DNA from: Actinobacteria bacterium OV450
GTDB lineage: Bacteria > Actinomycetota > Actinomycetes > Streptomycetales > Streptomycetaceae
NCBI GenBank assembly: GCA_001298555.1
Contig: LJCW01000011.1
Span: 1-64,000 of the forward strand
Direction: 5' to 3'
Length of the DNA: 64,000 nucleotides
The position numbers and the translations under genes were made by a program. The notes beneath the pieces were generated by a model. It was not told the origin of the DNA and searched no databases. It saw nothing but the letters and a program-made list of their open reading frames with translations. Shown one piece after another: positions 6,618 through 22,895 of this stretch. The stretch's first letter is position 1, and every line of letters begins with the position of its first letter.

Positions 6618-6691
6618 GCGCCGCTAGCTCAGTTGGTTAGAGCAGCTGACTCTTAATCAGCGGGTCCGGGGTTCGAGTCCCTGGCGGCGCA
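6618..6691 (+). tRNA. tRNA-Lys (anticodon CTT)
   Basis: Seven-bp acceptor stem GCGCCGC/GCGGCGC, anticodon stem GCTGA/TCAGC with loop CTCTTAA (anticodon CTT at 6652-6654), T-loop GTTCGAGTC, discriminator A. CCA is not encoded. An identical copy lies at 16300-16373 on the other strand. Confidence 0.97.
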
Positions 6692-6696
6692 CCTGT

Positions 6697-16293: not shown

Positions 16294-16299
16294 CGTCTG

Positions 16300-16373
16300 T
16301 GCGCCGCCAGGGACTCGAACCCCGGACCCGCTGATTAAGAGTCAGCTGCTCTAACCAACTGAGCTAGCGGCGC
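16300..16373 (-). tRNA. tRNA-Lys (anticodon CTT), second identical copy
   Basis: The reverse complement is identical over all 74 nt to the tRNA at 6618-6691, including anticodon CTT and discriminator A. CCA is not encoded. Confidence 0.97.
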
Positions 16374-18081: not shown

Positions 18082-19416
18082 CTACGGCCGCCAGGCCACC
18101 CGGTGCTCCGCGAGGTGGGCCAGGACCGAGTGGTTGGCCTCCCAGCCGTCCGGGAACTTCACCGTCACGCCCAACTGGACCGGTTCCGTGGACGGATGGT
18201 CGTCCAGCAGCTGGGCGATGCCCGCCCGGGCCACGACCACGCAGGCGTGCCGGTGCCGCGAGGCCAGCACGCACAGACGGCCCGTCTCCAGGTGGAACGC
18301 CGTCGCGTCCGGGCGGCCCGACAGCGGGTGCAGCACCACCGTGAGGTCGTACTCCCGCCCCTGGAGCCGGTTCGCGGTGTCCACGGTGACCCCGGCCACG
18401 CCCAGGTCCGCCAGGGCGGCGCGGACGGCCGACGCCTGGTCCCGGTGCGCCGTGCCGACCGCGATCCGGTCCGCGGTCAGCGGGGCCGGAGCCGCGGACT
18501 GCTCGTCCGTCGTCACCGCCCCCCGGTCCAGCGCGCGGCGGACCACCAGGGCCACCGCCCGCACCGCCTCCGGGTCGGTGCGCGGGGTGTGCCGCGCGGG
18601 CAGCTCCAGCAGGCCCCAGCCCGCCTCGGCGGCCTCGTCCAGCACCCGGTCCGGGCCCGAGCCGTCGCCCGCGACCCCGTACGACAGCTGCCGCTCACCC
18701 GGGCCCGTACCGCTGCGGAACTGCGTGTACGGGTAGAACGCGCGGGAGACCAGCGGCGCGGCCGTCGCCGGGAGCCGCCAGGACACCGGCAGCCGGTGCT
18801 GCGGCAGCTGCGGGTTGTGGGCGAGGAGGGTGCTGACGGCGCTGGCCGACGGGTCGTACGAAAGCCCCGCCCACTGCTCGGCGCCGACCACGCTGAACGG
18901 GTCCAACTGCCCCGGGTCGCCCACGAACAGCGCGCGCTCGAACAGCCCGGCCACGGCCAGCAGCGCGTCCGAGCGCATCTGGTACGCCTCGTCGACGATG
19001 GCGTGCTCCCAGGGCTCCGTGTCCTTCACGTACGCCCACTTCGCCGCCGTCGAGATGGTGATCGGCAGCGCCGCGAGGTCCCCCGGCTTGGCCGAGAGCG
19101 TGACCGACGGGAGCTCCCGCAGCGCCGGGTCGTACGCGTCGCCGTCGCTGCTGTGCAGCCGGCCGACCTTCAGCTCCGGATCCTTGTCCGCGAGCCGCAG
19201 CACCAGGTCGTCGACCTGCGCGTTGGTCTGCGCGACCACCATCAGCCGGCGCCCGGCCGCGGCCAGTTCCCGGGCGGCCCGCACCACGAGCGTGGACTTG
19301 CCGGCCCCGGGAGGGGAGTCGACGACCACGCCCCGCTCGCTCCCGTGCAGGGTGTCGCGCAGGATGGCGGCGGTCGCCTCGGCGGCGGCCGCGCCCGGGT
19401 CGAATGCGGTGCTCAC
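18082..19416 (-). CDS. SF1-like DNA/RNA helicase or AAA ATPase
   Basis: 444 residues. Walker A SPPGAGKST at 34-42; motif Ia VVAQTNAQVDDLVLRLA; Walker B IVDEAYQM (DEAY at 142-145); motif III VGDPGQLDPF (165-174); LPVSWRLP near 209; motif V VDTANRLQGREYDL (345-358); and motif VI region VLASRHRHACVVVAR. These mark it as a superfamily 1 helicase/translocase related to Pif1/RecD and UvrD-type cores, in a compact form without large insertions. GTG 19416 overlaps the upstream stop as GTGA, so translation is coupled to the 524-residue protein. It is the last gene of the nuclease-unknown-helicase operon. Confidence 0.88.
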   Translation of the reverse strand: MSTAFDPGAAAAEATAAILRDTLHGSERGVVVDSPPGAGKSTLVVRAARELAAAGRRLMVVAQTNAQVDDLVLRLADKDPELKVGRLHSSDGDAYDPALRELPSVTLSAKPGDLAALPITISTAAKWAYVKDTEPWEHAIVDEAYQMRSDALLAVAGLFERALFVGDPGQLDPFSVVGAEQWAGLSYDPSASAVSTLLAHNPQLPQHRLPVSWRLPATAAPLVSRAFYPYTQFRSGTGPGERQLSYGVAGDGSGPDRVLDEAAEAGWGLLELPARHTPRTDPEAVRAVALVVRRALDRGAVTTDEQSAAPAPLTADRIAVGTAHRDQASAVRAALADLGVAGVTVDTANRLQGREYDLTVVLHPLSGRPDATAFHLETGRLCVLASRHRHACVVVARAGIAQLLDDHPSTEPVQLGVTVKFPDGWEANHSVLAHLAEHRVAWRP

Positions 19417-20987
19417 AGGATGTCCTCGGCGGTCACGGGGTCGGGCGCGGTGTCGGGCGGGACGGTGGCGGTCGACGATGCCGGGGGTCCGCCGTGCGTC
19501 CACGGCGTCCGCTCCGGGTCCGGCAGCTTGGGGCCGCCGCGCGCGTCGTGCTCGAACAGCGTCCAGCAGACCCGGTCGCCCTTCTCCGGCACCGAGCCCG
19601 GCTCCGGCTCCCGGCCGCGGCCCATCTTGTCCAGCAGCCGCAGCACCAGCCGCCCGTCCTCCTCGAAGCGGACGAACTGCGCGGCCTGCGGGCGCCCCTC
19701 CAGCGAGCGGAACACCTTGCCGCCGCCCTCCGCGAGCTGCGGACGGTCCTCCGTCGCCACCGTCACCAGCGGGCGCGGACTCGGCCGCTTCGACTCCGTC
19801 CACTCCATCACGACCTCGGTGACCTCGCCCGCGAAGGCCTCGCCCGCCAGCCGCCGGCCCGCCATCACCAGCGGGTCGTCCAGCGCCTCCTGGGCGTCGA
19901 GGCGCACCTGCTCGGTCTCCCGCGTCGCCAGCTTCTGCGCCGCCGTCACCGCGTCGTCGCGTCGCGGCTGCGGAGGCTCGCCCGCCCGGACCCGGTCCCG
20001 GTGGCCGGTGTACGACCAGCGGTCCCGGGTCCAGCGCTCCTCGGCCCGCTCCCCGGGCTCCAGCGCGCGCAGCAGCTCCAGCGACTGCCACACCGCCCGC
20101 CAGGTGGGCTGCATCTGCTCCGCGACGAGCTCGCGCACGGCCGCCTCGGCGCGGGCCACGGCCCGCGGGTCGCCTTCGGTGCGCGCCGCGTCGTAGCGGG
20201 CCATCGCCGGGGCGAGCAGTTTGTTGTCGAAGGCCGGGTCGGTGGCCGGTCCGGCGGGCGGGACCAGCAGCTGCCCGTCGCGGTCGCGGCCCAGTTCGGC
20301 GCGCAGCGCGGCCGCCGCCCCCGATTCCCCCTCGGGCGGGGCTATCCACGACAGCAGGGCGCCCAGGTGCTGGTCCTCCAGACTGCTCTGCCCGGTGGCC
20401 CAGTGCCGTGAGAGCAGCTCCGTCGCGGCCAGCAGCATCGAGGCCCCGGGGACCCGGGAGCGCTCGCCGAGGTGCGTGAACCAGCGGCCCAGCAGCGGGA
20501 CCCGCGTGGGCACCGGATACGGATTCTCCGGATCCTCCTCCGCCGTCCGCCGGAACCGCATCGACCGGCCCAGGAGGCGTACGTACTCGATGCCGGCCCG
20601 GCTCGGCACGATCAGCTGCGGCGCGTCCAGGCACAGCTCGGCGGCGACCTTGCTCTTCGCGCCGGTCTCCGGGTCGGTCTCGGTCCGCTCGACGTACTCG
20701 ACGTCGTCCGCGTACGCGTCCACGTAGGGCAGGACCGTCTCCGCGAGGTCCGCCAGGAACCTCCAGCGCAGGTCCCGGTCGCGCGGCTGCGGCACCACCA
20801 GCAGCCGCGGCTCCGCCGGGTCCGTGCCGACCAGCACGCCGAGCGGGGCCCCGGCCTCGCCCGCCGTCGTCAGCGGGACGAGGACCAGCGGGCGCTCGCT
20901 CAGGTGCCGGTGCCGTACGGTCGCCAGCGCCTGGGCCCGGCCCGTCCGGACGGCCTGGAGGCGCGCGAGGGTGTTCAGGAGGGACAT
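19413..20987 (-). CDS. Unknown 524-residue protein of the nuclease/helicase operon
   Basis: Starts ATG 20987 (MSLLNTLARLQAVRTGRAQA). No domain recognised. The N-terminal part has beta-rich blocks (RPLVLVPLTTAGEAGAPLGV, RLLVVPQPRDRDLRWRFLAD), the centre is helical and charged, with LAPAMARYDAARTEGDPRAV and WQSLELLRALEPGERAEERW, and the C-terminal part contains GRLVLRLLDKMGRGREPEPG and GDRVCWTLFEHDARG. No signal peptide, no membrane segment, no P-loop. It overlaps the upstream nuclease gene by 13 nt and the downstream helicase gene by 4 nt, so the three proteins are probably made together. It may be an adaptor or DNA-binding subunit; that is inference from position only. Confidence 0.85.
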   Translation of the reverse strand: MSLLNTLARLQAVRTGRAQALATVRHRHLSERPLVLVPLTTAGEAGAPLGVLVGTDPAEPRLLVVPQPRDRDLRWRFLADLAETVLPYVDAYADDVEYVERTETDPETGAKSKVAAELCLDAPQLIVPSRAGIEYVRLLGRSMRFRRTAEEDPENPYPVPTRVPLLGRWFTHLGERSRVPGASMLLAATELLSRHWATGQSSLEDQHLGALLSWIAPPEGESGAAAALRAELGRDRDGQLLVPPAGPATDPAFDNKLLAPAMARYDAARTEGDPRAVARAEAAVRELVAEQMQPTWRAVWQSLELLRALEPGERAEERWTRDRWSYTGHRDRVRAGEPPQPRRDDAVTAAQKLATRETEQVRLDAQEALDDPLVMAGRRLAGEAFAGEVTEVVMEWTESKRPSPRPLVTVATEDRPQLAEGGGKVFRSLEGRPQAAQFVRFEEDGRLVLRLLDKMGRGREPEPGSVPEKGDRVCWTLFEHDARGGPKLPDPERTPWTHGGPPASSTATVPPDTAPDPVTAEDIL

Positions 20988-22150
20988 GCGGCGGCCTCCA
21001 GGGCCTCGGCGCGCAGCCGGGCCGCCCGGTGCAGCGCGGCCGCGGCGGGGTCGTCGGGGCCACCGCCGCCGGAAGCGGCCGCGAGGGCCTCCCCGACGGT
21101 GGTGAGCGCTCCGAGCTCCCCCCGTACGGAGCGCCCCAGTGCGGTCACCTCGTCGGCGGCGCGGGCCCGCTCGCGGCAGTGGAAGGCGAGCTCGCAGGCG
21201 GCCAGGCACTCGGGGGCGTAGGCGGCCGCGACCGCCGACACCGCGGCGGTCAGTTCCTCGGCGGGCAGCGAGGGGTCGAAGCCGAGCCCCTCGGGCAGGG
21301 CCGCGGCCAGTTCCTCGACCCGCGTCAGCCGCTCCAGCCTGCGCCGGGTCACGGCCCGCTCGCGGCGGACGTCGACGGGCGCGGCGGCGGGCAGGTTGGA
21401 GAAGTCCTTCGGGCAGACGAGCAGCACGGTGTGCCCGACCACGGCGGAGGCCAGCTTTCCGGCGGTCCTCTCCAGGGCCAGGACGTACACGGCGGCCTGC
21501 CGGGCGGCGGCGCCCACCTTCGCGGCGTCGGCCGCCCCGTCGATCATCGGGAACGACTTGATCTCCACGACGGTCCAGCGGCCGTCGGGGTGCACCACGA
21601 CGGCGTCCGGTTCCAGGTAGGCGGGGGAGCCCGCCACCTCCAGGGCCAGCATCGGGTGGTCCAGCAGGGTCCAGGCGCCGGAGGCGGCCGCGGCGGCGGT
21701 CGCCTCGCGCAACGCGAGGGCGGTGCGGGCGGCGCGGCCCTCCGGCCCGGCGGCGGTCAGGTCGGGGACGCGGGCGTCCGGGCCGGGCGGTTCGGCCCCG
21801 GCGCCCAGGTGCCGGTGGACCAGTTCCAGCAGGACGGCTCCGCCGTCGCCCTTGACCCTGGCCTCGAAGGAGTTCCCGCGGGCGATGGCGAACTGCGACT
21901 GGCCGAACGGGGCGGGCGAGCCCAGGGCCGCGGCCAGGGCCGTCTTGTCCACCCCGGCTCCGTCGAGCAGGGTGCGTCTGCCGCAGCCGGGGTTGGCGGC
22001 GAGCGCCGCCAGCGCACGTGCGTCGAGGGGACGGGGCGGCACGGCGGGGCCGCGCAGGTCAGCGAGCCGCTGCCGCAGTGTCGTCGTCGGAGGCGGGCCG
22101 CTGGGCGGGTAGGAGCTCACGGGCGGAAGTGTCCCATCCGCCACTGACAA
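20975..22150 (-). CDS. RecB/Cas4-like PD-(D/E)XK nuclease with predicted Fe-S cluster
   Basis: 391 residues from ATG 22150 (GTG 22120 is an alternative). Nuclease core: GNSFE (92-96), LEPDAVVV with Asp182, WTVVEIKSF with Glu196 and Lys198, then QAAVY (Gln218, Tyr222), the QxxxY motif of RecB-family nucleases. Four cysteines flank the core as in Cas4, AddB and Dna2: Cys56 at the N-terminus and Cys315-x3-Cys319-x5-Cys325 near the C-terminus. A 4Fe-4S nuclease acting on DNA ends or single strands is therefore the best guess. The first gene of the three overlaps the preceding PAP2 gene by 92 nt. There is no CRISPR array or cas gene in the window. Confidence 0.85.
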   Translation of the reverse strand: MSVADGTLPPVSSYPPSGPPPTTTLRQRLADLRGPAVPPRPLDARALAALAANPGCGRRTLLDGAGVDKTALAAALGSPAPFGQSQFAIARGNSFEARVKGDGGAVLLELVHRHLGAGAEPPGPDARVPDLTAAGPEGRAARTALALREATAAAAASGAWTLLDHPMLALEVAGSPAYLEPDAVVVHPDGRWTVVEIKSFPMIDGAADAAKVGAAARQAAVYVLALERTAGKLASAVVGHTVLLVCPKDFSNLPAAAPVDVRRERAVTRRRLERLTRVEELAAALPEGLGFDPSLPAEELTAAVSAVAAAYAPECLAACELAFHCRERARAADEVTALGRSVRGELGALTTVGEALAAASGGGGPDDPAAAALHRAARLRAEALEAAACPS

Positions 22151-22895
22151 TCGTGGTCGTACCGCGAAAACCGGCTGCTCGGCCGGGCAGCCGGCGCGCG
22201 ATCGCGTACCCGGCGGCCGTCACGGCGACCCCGGCGGCCGCGTCCAGGAAGTAGTGGTTGGCGGTGCCCATGACCACGAGCGCGGTGAGGGCCGGATAGG
22301 CGATGCCGAGTCCCCGCAGCAGCGGGCGGCGCCCGTAACGCCACAGCAGGACCCCGCACCACAGCGCCCAGCCGACGTGCAGGCTCGGCATGGCCGCGTA
22401 CTGGTTGGTCAGGCCCCCGAGCCCGCGCGGGGCGCTGGCCTCGGCGCCCCACCAGCCGTAGCCGCTGTACCGGGCCATCGTGTCGGTGAACCCGTACGCG
22501 GGGTCCAGCAGCCGGGGCGGGCACGTGGGCATCAGGGTGAAGCCGACGAGCCCGAGGAGGGTGGAGACCACCAGCCAGGTGCGGGCGCTGCGGTAGTGCC
22601 CCGGCCGGCACAGGTACAGCCAGACCAGCACCGCCGGGGTGACGAGGTAGTGCAGGGAGGCGTAGACGAAGTCGGCGGGTATCCCGAGCAGCCCCTGATC
22701 GGAGAAGAGCCGGTTGAGGGGGTGTTCGAAGTCGATCCCCAGCAGCTCCTCGGTCCGGAGGATCGCGAGCCCGTGGCCGGTGGCGAGGTGGACGTCACCG
22801 CGGGCGAGGAGTCTGCCACCGGTGTACGCGCCGTAGACGAGTCCCAGGAGCAGCAGTTCGGCCCACCACCGGGTGGGCTTCTGCCGGTCAGTCAT
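22059..22895 (-). CDS. PAP2-family membrane phosphatase (inositolphosphotransferase-like)
   Basis: 278 residues with about six membrane segments, including WWAELLLLGLVYGAYTGGRL, WLVVSTLLGLVGFTLMPTCP and YPALTALVVMGT. The PAP2 motifs of the Aur1/Ipt1-like branch are present: AAMPSLHVGWALW and GTANHYFLDAAAGV with its His and Asp. It is expected to hydrolyse or transfer a lipid phosphate at the outer membrane face. Divergent from the histidine phosphatase gene. Its last ~30 codons (a polar, Asp/Ala-rich tail) overlap the start of the nuclease gene in another frame. Confidence 0.85.
   Translation of the reverse strand: MTDRQKPTRWWAELLLLGLVYGAYTGGRLLARGDVHLATGHGLAILRTEELLGIDFEHPLNRLFSDQGLLGIPADFVYASLHYLVTPAVLVWLYLCRPGHYRSARTWLVVSTLLGLVGFTLMPTCPPRLLDPAYGFTDTMARYSGYGWWGAEASAPRGLGGLTNQYAAMPSLHVGWALWCGVLLWRYGRRPLLRGLGIAYPALTALVVMGTANHYFLDAAAGVAVTAAGYAIARRLPGRAAGFRGTTTIVSGGWDTSARELLPAQRPASDDDTAAAAR

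What the first reader, a model, noticed from the sequence alone, without database searches (positions are those of the whole stretch)
18082..22150. Compact operon: Fe-S PD-(D/E)XK nuclease, unknown 524-aa protein, SF1-like helicase
Seen: three genes on the minus strand overlap by 13 and 4 nt. The first has D182, E196-x-K198, QxxxY and a Cys56 / Cys315-x3-Cys319-x5-Cys325 pattern. The third has full SF1 motifs. Known: Dna2, AddB and Cas4 join an Fe-S nuclease with SF1 helicase activity in DNA-end processing, recombination or adaptation. Inference: this is a split Dna2/AddAB-like machine with a third subunit of unknown fold, acting in repair, plasmid/phage DNA removal or recombination. I know no described system with this layout. 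If it is conserved in most streptomycetes a housekeeping repair role is likelier; if patchy, defence.
Basis: partly seen in the sequence, partly recalled or inferred. Interest (0 to 1): 0.75.

Follow-up and report, generated by a model that had tools for sequence, protein, structure and literature searches.

The report
Three-gene split Dna2-like DNA machine
Three overlapping genes in Streptomyces appear to encode, in three separate pieces, the iron-sulphur nuclease, the barrel domain and the helicase motor that the DNA-repair enzyme Dna2 carries in one chain; nearly every streptomycete examined keeps them, and some relatives sit beside anti-plasmid defence genes.

Summary
In detail: three minus-strand genes overlap by 13 and 4 nt. 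In g1 the catalytic and Cys residues are kept in 34-35 of 35 aligned sequences; in g3 the helicase residues checked are kept in 24 of 24. g2, unknown to Pfam, has a confident model (pLDDT 90.6). Its C-terminal barrel matches that of IGHMBP2 (Z 9.2, 2.3 A); its N-terminal half resembles the exonuclease domain of family-B polymerases (Z 9.5) but lacks D-x-E in 42 of 42 rows. Nuclease, barrel, RecA1/RecA2 motor is Dna2's order (PMC4716839), so the operon reads as a colinear three-gene split of a Dna2-like machine. It is core in Streptomycetaceae: g1 146, g2 147, g3 147 of 150 genomes. Elsewhere it is patchy, often with a fourth gene; ten such loci carry SbcCD, and seven of these also Wadjet genes, of three types. 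I favour DNA-end processing: housekeeping in the core copy, foreign-DNA clearance beside Wadjet. Architecture rests on predicted folds; function and complex formation are untested. No published description turned up in the searches made. New variant of a known kind.

The parts
20975..22150 (-). g1: Fe-S-type PD-(D/E)XK (RecB/Cas4/AddB-like) nuclease, 391 aa
21485..21607 (-). g1 residues D182-Y222: catalytic core D182, E196-x-K198, Q218-x3-Y222
21983..21985 (-). g1 Cys56, first ligand of the inferred Fe-S cluster
   Evidence: invariant in 35 of 35 rows
21176..21208 (-). g1 Cys315-x3-Cys319-x5-Cys325, other three inferred Fe-S ligands
   Evidence: invariant in 35 of 35 rows
19413..20987 (-). g2: 524 aa, pseudo-exonuclease-like N half, helical middle, C-terminal helicase-type beta barrel
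20283..20897 (-). g2 residues 31-235: RNase H/DnaQ-like exonuclease fold without D-x-E on strand 1
   Evidence: VIA-align Z 9.5, 179 aligned, 3.6 A to Tgo 135-343 (aligned model range 31-321); 0 of 42 rows with D-x-E
19872..20237 (-). g2 residues 251-372: long helices; helix 346-370 lies where Dna2/IGHMBP2 have a stalk helix (by order only, not superposed)
   Evidence: DSSP on the model
19551..19856 (-). g2 residues 378-479: beta barrel of the Dna2/Upf1-like SF1B helicases
   Evidence: VIA-align to IGHMBP2 4b3f 37-139, Z 9.2, 2.3 A, 83 residues; SETX and Sen1 Z 7.5-7.8
18082..19416 (-). g3: 444 aa SF1B (Dna2/Upf1-like) helicase core, RecA1 + RecA2 only, motif I starting near residue 33
22059..22895 (-). 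Upstream syntenic neighbour (PAP2-like by inspection, no family search made) whose 3' end overlaps the TTG start of g1
   Evidence: upstream on the same strand in 56 of 64 hyp281-less loci

Best explanation
g1-g2-g3 encode one machine: a Dna2-like nuclease-helicase split into three colinear subunits. g3 is the bare two-RecA SF1B motor. g2 supplies the barrel domain that in Dna2, IGHMBP2 and Upf1 precedes the motor in the same chain, and adds an RNase H-like exonuclease fold that has probably lost catalysis and may serve as a scaffold or DNA-binding part. g1 is the Fe-S 'stapled' nuclease through which single-stranded DNA would be threaded. Expected action: the complex loads on a DNA end or flap, g3 (with the g2 barrel) translocates 5'-3' on one strand and feeds it to g1, which cuts it. 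In Streptomycetaceae the chromosomal copy is a vertically inherited core locus, so its most likely job is DNA-end or flap processing in repair or replication. Relatives with a fourth gene, next to SbcCD and Wadjet, most likely do the same to foreign DNA, for example degrading plasmids that Wadjet has cut. Shown: gene layout, conservation of residues, predicted folds, distribution, neighbours. Inferred: complex formation, Fe-S cluster, polarity, substrate, both biological roles.
For: Conserved catalytic and Cys residues of g1 and its fold. g2 barrel match to IGHMBP2/SETX/Sen1. g3 matches DNA2 best in the PDB by sequence (E 8e-8 alone; profile E 9e-17). Dna2's order is nuclease, then barrel held by a two-helix stalk, then helicase 1A/2A (PMC4716839, passages), the same order as g1-g2-g3. 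g3's profile hits the C-terminal ~400 residues of long fused proteins in 13 of 15 loci examined, E 5e-26 to 3e-33 (ten of the 15 were picked because g3 had matched, five by TIGR03491, of which three hit); in 12 of these 13 a TIGR03491 (TM0106) nuclease match lies in the same open frame. Overlaps kept in 85 of 101 and 86 of 96 loci. All three genes in 78 of 80 loci; g1 and g3 both present or both absent in 12 of 12 chosen genomes, even where g3 is about 37 and 50 kb away. Core in Streptomycetaceae, syntenic. SbcCD in 10 and Wadjet in 7 of 35 loci with the fourth gene, 0 and 0 of 69 without, at similar flank lengths.
Against: No complex was modelled and no biochemistry exists. A profile of g1 found no nuclease in the PDB at E <= 10, and a profile of g2 nothing meaningful. 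Profile comparison of g1 and g2 with the fused TM0106-type proteins is not significant (g1 E 0.0027-0.007, g2 barrel 0.02-0.28, g2 N half 0.1 or worse), so homology there rests on predicted folds. Z 9.5 and 9.2 are moderate; flavin-reductase-type barrels reach Z 8.2 against the same g2 region. Foldseek alone gave no E <= 0.001 for g1 or g2. Two near-identical paralogues (L065, L076) have E96, E196 and K198 of g1 replaced, so nuclease activity is not indispensable everywhere. On plasmids of Rhodococcus, Mycobacterium and others a g2-like/g3-like pair occurs with MoxR and VWA genes and without g1. No exact SOS-type box (GAAC-N4-GTTC) lies near the operon.
Confidence: 0.6

Rival explanations
1. 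The window operon is itself a fixed anti-plasmid/anti-phage module: it degrades incoming or cut foreign DNA, and its universality in streptomycetes reflects constant exposure to conjugative plasmids and phages.
For: Relatives sit with SbcCD in 10 of 35 hyp281-bearing loci and with Wadjet genes of three types in 7 of these 10; one with type I restriction genes (L115); one near a type III restriction-like and an Argonaute-system-like protein (L157); the distant G310 copy lies beside an integrase-like and a restriction-helicase-like gene (by inspection).
Against: The core copy has a fixed chromosomal context, near-universal presence, no SbcCD or Wadjet found in 69 of 69 hyp281-less loci, and purifying selection.
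Confidence: 0.25
2. RNA or R-loop machine: the motor is of the Upf1/senataxin group, so the complex may unwind RNA or RNA-DNA hybrids, with g1 trimming the freed strand.
For: g3 and the g2 barrel resemble Upf1, IGHMBP2, SETX and Sen1; viral cap-snatching RNA endonucleases are among g1's weaker fold matches.
Against: DNA2 is the best PDB sequence hit of g3; g1's better fold matches are DNA nucleases; SbcCD and Wadjet beside the relatives act on DNA.
Confidence: 0.1
3. The three proteins do not form one complex: g2 is a separate scaffold whose matches are superficial, and g1 and g3 act independently.
For: Moderate Z values only; g1-g2 and g3 are unlinked in two genomes of family f6; g2-g3 occur without g1 on other plasmids.
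Against: Conserved gene overlaps, co-retention, and the domain order of Dna2.
Confidence: 0.15

Closest known systems
Dna2 nuclease-helicase (eukaryotes)
   Same: Fe-S RecB-like nuclease, helicase barrel domain, SF1B Upf1-like motor, in the same order; g3's best PDB sequence hit
   Different: Three separate proteins; extra RNase H-like domain in g2; a Dna2-type N-terminal OB domain was not looked for; no activity shown
TM0106-family fused nuclease/helicases (TIGR03491; open frames of 1131-1447 aa)
   Same: g3 is homologous to their C-terminal helicase (E to 3e-33), and a TIGR03491 nuclease match precedes it in the same frame in 12 of 13; a TIGR03491 protein in L063 has an RNase_H_2 domain
   Different: One chain; no significant sequence match to g1 or g2; g1-g3 do not hit TIGR03491 at E <= 1
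IGHMBP2/Upf1/senataxin SF1B helicases
   Same: Barrel domain followed by RecA1/RecA2
   Different: Barrel and motor are on separate chains here; nuclease partner
AddAB / AdnAB / RecBCD
   Same: RecB-family nuclease, Fe-S in AddB, helicase partner
   Different: Their motors are UvrD-like SF1A fused to the nuclease (recalled); g3 is SF1B and separate
Solo Cas4 and Cas4-like nucleases linked to helicases (PMC5704561, passages seen)
   Same: Cas4-like fold, encoded beside helicases
   Different: The passages I saw describe UvrD-like and COG1205 partners, not a Dna2-like motor plus barrel subunit

Membership tests
Dna2 | PD-(D/E)XK nuclease with four Cys of an Fe-S staple flanking the core | tested here: met
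   Residues kept in 34-35 of 35 rows; fold match to Cas4, AddB and, weaker, Dna2 (Z 6.3-6.6). The cluster itself is not testable here.
Dna2 | Beta barrel between nuclease and helicase | tested here: met
   g2 375-478 vs IGHMBP2 barrel, Z 9.2, 2.3 A; lies between g1 and g3 in gene order. Predicted fold only.
Dna2 | SF1B Upf1-like helicase, RecA1 and RecA2 | tested here: met
   AAA_11/AAA_12 above cut-off; DNA2 best PDB hit; motif residues 24 of 24
Dna2 | All domains in one polypeptide | tested here: not met
   Three ORFs. Fused forms of g1-g3 were not searched for as such.
Dna2 | ssDNA-dependent nuclease and ATPase activity | not testable with these tools
   needs protein
TM0106 family (TIGR03491) | Match to the family model above cut-off | tested here: not met
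   No hit of g1, g2 or g3 to TIGR03491 at E <= 1; no match in the own genome at E <= 0.001
AddAB/AdnAB | UvrD-type SF1A motor fused to a RecB-type nuclease | tested here: not met
   Window g3 hits AAA_11/12/30, no UvrD model in Pfam at E <= 1 (the distant L064 g3 has one below cut-off, E 0.035); nuclease is a separate gene
Cas4 | Match to the cas4 equivalog model | tested here: not met
   g1: 0 families in NCBIfam at E <= 1; fold similarity only
Known anti-phage system (PADLOC 2.0.0) | Dedicated models for its proteins | tested here: not met
   g1 and g2: 0 hits at E <= 1; g3 only partial matches to helicases of other systems, best MkoA E 2e-9. Library is from 2023.

The most novel reading that the evidence does not exclude
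A three-subunit bacterial Dna2 whose helicase barrel and motor are on different chains, working downstream of Wadjet and beside SbcCD to destroy plasmids after the first cut. Streptomycetes would have made this machine a permanent chromosomal gene set, so that one complex bridges repair and immunity.
Probability: 0.25. Interest if true: 0.8.

Novelty: new variant of a known kind. Interest (0 to 1): 0.62.

Why it matters
An operon kept by nearly every streptomycete examined, carrying what look like all the parts of a Dna2-like end-processing machine, had no family model above cut-off for two of its three proteins and did not turn up in the paper listings and passages I saw. A helicase whose barrel domain is supplied in trans would be an unusual design and a handle for biochemistry. 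The repeated neighbourhood with SbcCD and three Wadjet types gives a direct hypothesis for what happens to plasmid DNA after Wadjet cuts it.

Tried and rejected
AddAB-type machine: rejected, motor is SF1B. Membership of TM0106/TIGR03491: rejected for g1-g3; profile comparison of g1 and g2 with such proteins not significant. DUF3458_C match of g2 (E 0.001, below cut-off) and matches of g1's profile to designed repeat proteins (E 2e-10 summed from many weak pieces): judged artefacts. Phage origin: no match of g3 in phage records, none confirmed for g3 in viral contigs, nothing convincing for the g2 model among viral models; g1 and g2 were not searched in phages. The phrog_25411 (E 3e-17) and PLuB (E 6e-17) matches of g3 were not followed beyond one literature search. 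SOS regulation: no exact box near the operon.

Neighbourhood controls. PADLOC scan of 43 of the 44 predicted neighbours at nine SbcCD-type or same-clade loci (first 25 of 112 families shown) and of 43 of the 56 predicted neighbours at five other four-gene loci (all 24 families shown): the second set has no Wadjet family but does have a type II restriction-modification pair and other matches, so restriction genes alone are weak evidence. My first Wadjet count used only type I queries and gave 3; with type II and III queries taken from L218 and L073 it is 7 of 35 against 0 of 69. Loci are not independent (L077/L080, L065/L076, and L062/L146 from Nocardia carnea are close kin).

Literature: searches for TM0106, PLuB, Cas4-like/Dna2 in actinobacteria, split helicase, Wadjet with SbcCD in Streptomyces, Fe-S/Dna2-like operons, Streptomyces defence, signature genes and IGHMBP2/Dna2 domains gave no description of this operon in the listings and passages I saw. 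Only passages were read, of PMC5704561, PMC10482375, PMC10586767 and PMC4716839. S. coelicolor gene numbers were not identified.
Full report
Observation. Three minus-strand genes lie at 22150-20975 (g1, 391 aa), 20987-19413 (g2, 524 aa) and 19416-18082 (g3, 444 aa), overlapping by 13 and 4 nt. Across 35 aligned g1 sequences (A6, window included), C56, C315, C319, C325, D182, Q218 and Y222 never change, and E96, E196, K198 are kept in 34 of 35. dN/dS is 0.11-0.32 for the three genes against two close relatives.

What the proteins are. Pfam finds only a sub-threshold PDDEXK_1 match for g1, nothing above cut-off for g2, and AAA_11/AAA_30/AAA_12 for g3. NCBIfam, PHROGs and PADLOC have nothing for g1 and g2 at E <= 1. 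g3's best PDB sequence relative is DNA2, alone (E 8e-8) and as a profile (9e-17). Profiles of g1 and g2 find no meaningful PDB sequence, no nuclease for g1. AlphaFold2 models built on homologue alignments are confident: g2 pLDDT 90.6, pTM 0.88; g1 pLDDT 89.7, pTM 0.84. g1 resembles Cas4-Cas1 (Z 10.3, 4.3 A, 198 residues), then DinG, RecE, AddAB, Exo5, lambda exonuclease, RecB, AdnA, and Dna2 at Z 6.3-6.6. Foldseek alone gives no E under 0.001 for either model.

The middle protein. g2 has two recognisable parts. Residues 375-478 superpose on the barrel of the IGHMBP2 helicase (4b3f 37-139; Z 9.2, 2.3 A, 83 residues), with SETX and Sen1 at Z 7.5-7.8, but also flavin-reductase-type barrels at Z 7.2-8.2. 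Residues 31 to about 320 superpose on family-B polymerases in the stretch 135-343 of Tgo (Z 9.5, 3.6 A, 179 residues), with KOD, 9N, E. coli Pol II and a poxvirus polymerase also listed. That this stretch is the 3'-5' exonuclease domain, and that its strand 1 should carry D-x-E, is recalled knowledge. No D-x-E is present in the aligned stretch in 42 of 42 g2 rows, so I read it as a pseudo-exonuclease. g3 begins shortly before motif I and has no room for the barrel.

Why Dna2-like. The Dna2 structure paper (PMC4716839, passages) describes an Fe-S nuclease, then a beta barrel held by a stalk of two long helices, then helicase domains 1A and 2A; it says barrel, stalk and helicase are Upf1-like and that the group moves 5'-3'. 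g1, g2 and g3 give the same order in three proteins. Fused TM0106-type proteins offer a second comparison. Of 15 loci fetched, ten were picked because g3 had matched and five by TIGR03491; g3's profile hits the C-terminal ~400 residues of a long frame in 13 (three of the five; hhalign 2.6e-33), and in 12 of the 13 the TIGR03491 nuclease match lies in the same frame. For g1 and g2 the sequence comparison with those proteins is not significant, although g1's best region is their nuclease (E 0.0027) and the g2 barrel's best region is the stretch just before their helicase (E 0.02). This part of the argument therefore rests on predicted folds and on order.

Do the genes belong together? Of the other two, L114 ends just after g1 and L091, a Micromonospora, has g1-g2 only. 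In two genomes of family f6 g3 is present but about 37 and 50 kb away. g1 and g3 were both present or both absent in 12 of 12 chosen genomes. A g3 start that gives a 4-nt overlap with g2 is available in 85 of 101 loci, and a g2 start overlapping g1 by about 15 nt or less in 86 of 96.

Distribution. In 150 Streptomycetaceae genomes, the window's included, g1 is found in 146, g2 in 147 and g3 in 149, of which G098 and G022 have weak matches only, leaving 147. G098 and G022 have no g3 at E <= 1e-20 by profile; G138 is 71% complete. In 394 genomes of the class, 70 have g1: 39 of 40 same-genus genomes (own included) and 31 of the rest, in 15 of 137 genera. In a 296-genome phylum sample strong g3 matches outside the genus were few: G346, G198, G393 and G310. 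The core copy is syntenic: the PAP2-like gene lies upstream on the same strand in 56 of 64 loci.

Two lifestyles. Outside the core copy the operon often has a fourth gene upstream, a ~255-290 aa protein (hyp281) without a Pfam assignment above cut-off. It is in 35 of 104 loci with g1 and gave no match in the window's genome. A maximum-likelihood tree of g3 (65 rows, long branches flagged) groups the Nocardia, most Actinomadura and the Streptomyces core copies by taxon. A separate clade of 10 rows (95/85) mixes Streptomyces plasmids and other Streptomycetaceae, Nocardia gamkensis, Thermomonospora and a genome of another family. SbcCD lies beside the operon in 10 of 35 hyp281-bearing loci and in 0 of 69 others; eight of the ten belong to that clade, L157 and L217 do not. 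With queries of all three Wadjet types, Wadjet genes are found in 7 of the 35 and in 0 of the 69, at similar flank lengths: JetABCD of the DUF3375/DUF4194 kind on two plasmids (L077, L080) and JetABC of it in L066, JetC3/JetD3 in L073 and L074, JetA2/JetB2 in L218, JetA2 in L217. All seven also have SbcCD. In L074 and L217 Wadjet lies beyond SbcCD. L115 has type I restriction genes, L157 type III restriction-like and Argonaute-system-like genes. In L080 SbcC and SbcD are broken into pieces. A control of 43 of 56 neighbours at five other four-gene loci shows no Wadjet but does show restriction genes.

Mechanism, with likelihood. I think it most likely (0.6) that the three proteins form a Dna2-like complex that processes DNA ends or flaps, with g3 as motor, g2 as barrel and scaffold, and g1 as threaded nuclease. 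The core copy is probably housekeeping, and the copies beside SbcCD and Wadjet probably clear foreign DNA. The Wadjet review (PMC10586767, passages) says that Wadjet cuts circular but not linear DNA and that Rad50 complexes recognise ends. A nuclease-helicase acting on the ends that Wadjet makes would complete such a path; this step is inference. About 42% of actinobacterial genomes carry Wadjet (PMC10482375, passages), so co-occurrence in a genome would mean little, but adjacency to three Wadjet types is less easily chance; I did not compute a probability, and the seven loci are not fully independent.

Novelty. Within the searches listed under Tried and rejected I found no description of this operon. 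I rate it a new variant of a known kind: a split Dna2-like machine with its barrel in trans.

Noticed in passing
L078 4032-9134, L079 3793-9137, L084 4749-10146, L085 4991-10131: Large plasmids of Rhodococcus, Mycolicibacterium, Mycobacterium and Xylanimonas carry MoxR, VWA (DUF2201 in L078), a small gene, a g2-like and a g3-like gene in a row, without g1; 49 plasmid records match g3.
   Followed up: partly
L082 7484-10182: Euzebya plasmid has a two-gene form, g2-like plus g3-like, near a DpdB-named gene and a DNA cytosine methyltransferase.
   Followed up: no
L063 5062-6753 (-): A TIGR03491-type nuclease/RNase_H_2 protein of 564 aa, too short to hold a helicase (E 4e-46), overlaps the end of g3 by 17 nt, as if a fourth subunit.
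   Followed up: partly
L065 7017-8135 and L076 5135-6253: Near-identical Streptomyces paralogues in which g1 has E96, E196 and K198 replaced by H, L and R, so its nuclease is probably dead while the operon is kept.
   Followed up: partly
L077 6971-7816 and homologues: hyp281, the fourth gene of the non-core operon, has a strongly conserved SLRRDEERSF-type stretch and no known family above cut-off.
   Followed up: no
L066 3794-6043 and L075 9910-12150: A DEAD/ResIII helicase with HA domains follows g3 directly in two paralogous clusters; the L066 copy lies about 17 kb from a contig end of a one-contig genome.
   Followed up: no
L067 (G123 C2): A 64 kb contig holds g2 and g3 of the SbcCD-type clade but no g1 was recognised in the 18 kb read.
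   Followed up: no
window 6618-6693 and 16299-16373: Two tRNA-Lys (CTT) genes lie about 9.7 kb apart on opposite strands, one about 1.7 kb downstream of the operon.
   Followed up: no
G098 and G022: Two fairly complete Streptomycetaceae genomes of small size (5.8 and 5.4 Mb) gave no match to g1 or g2 and none to g3 at E <= 1e-20.
   Followed up: no
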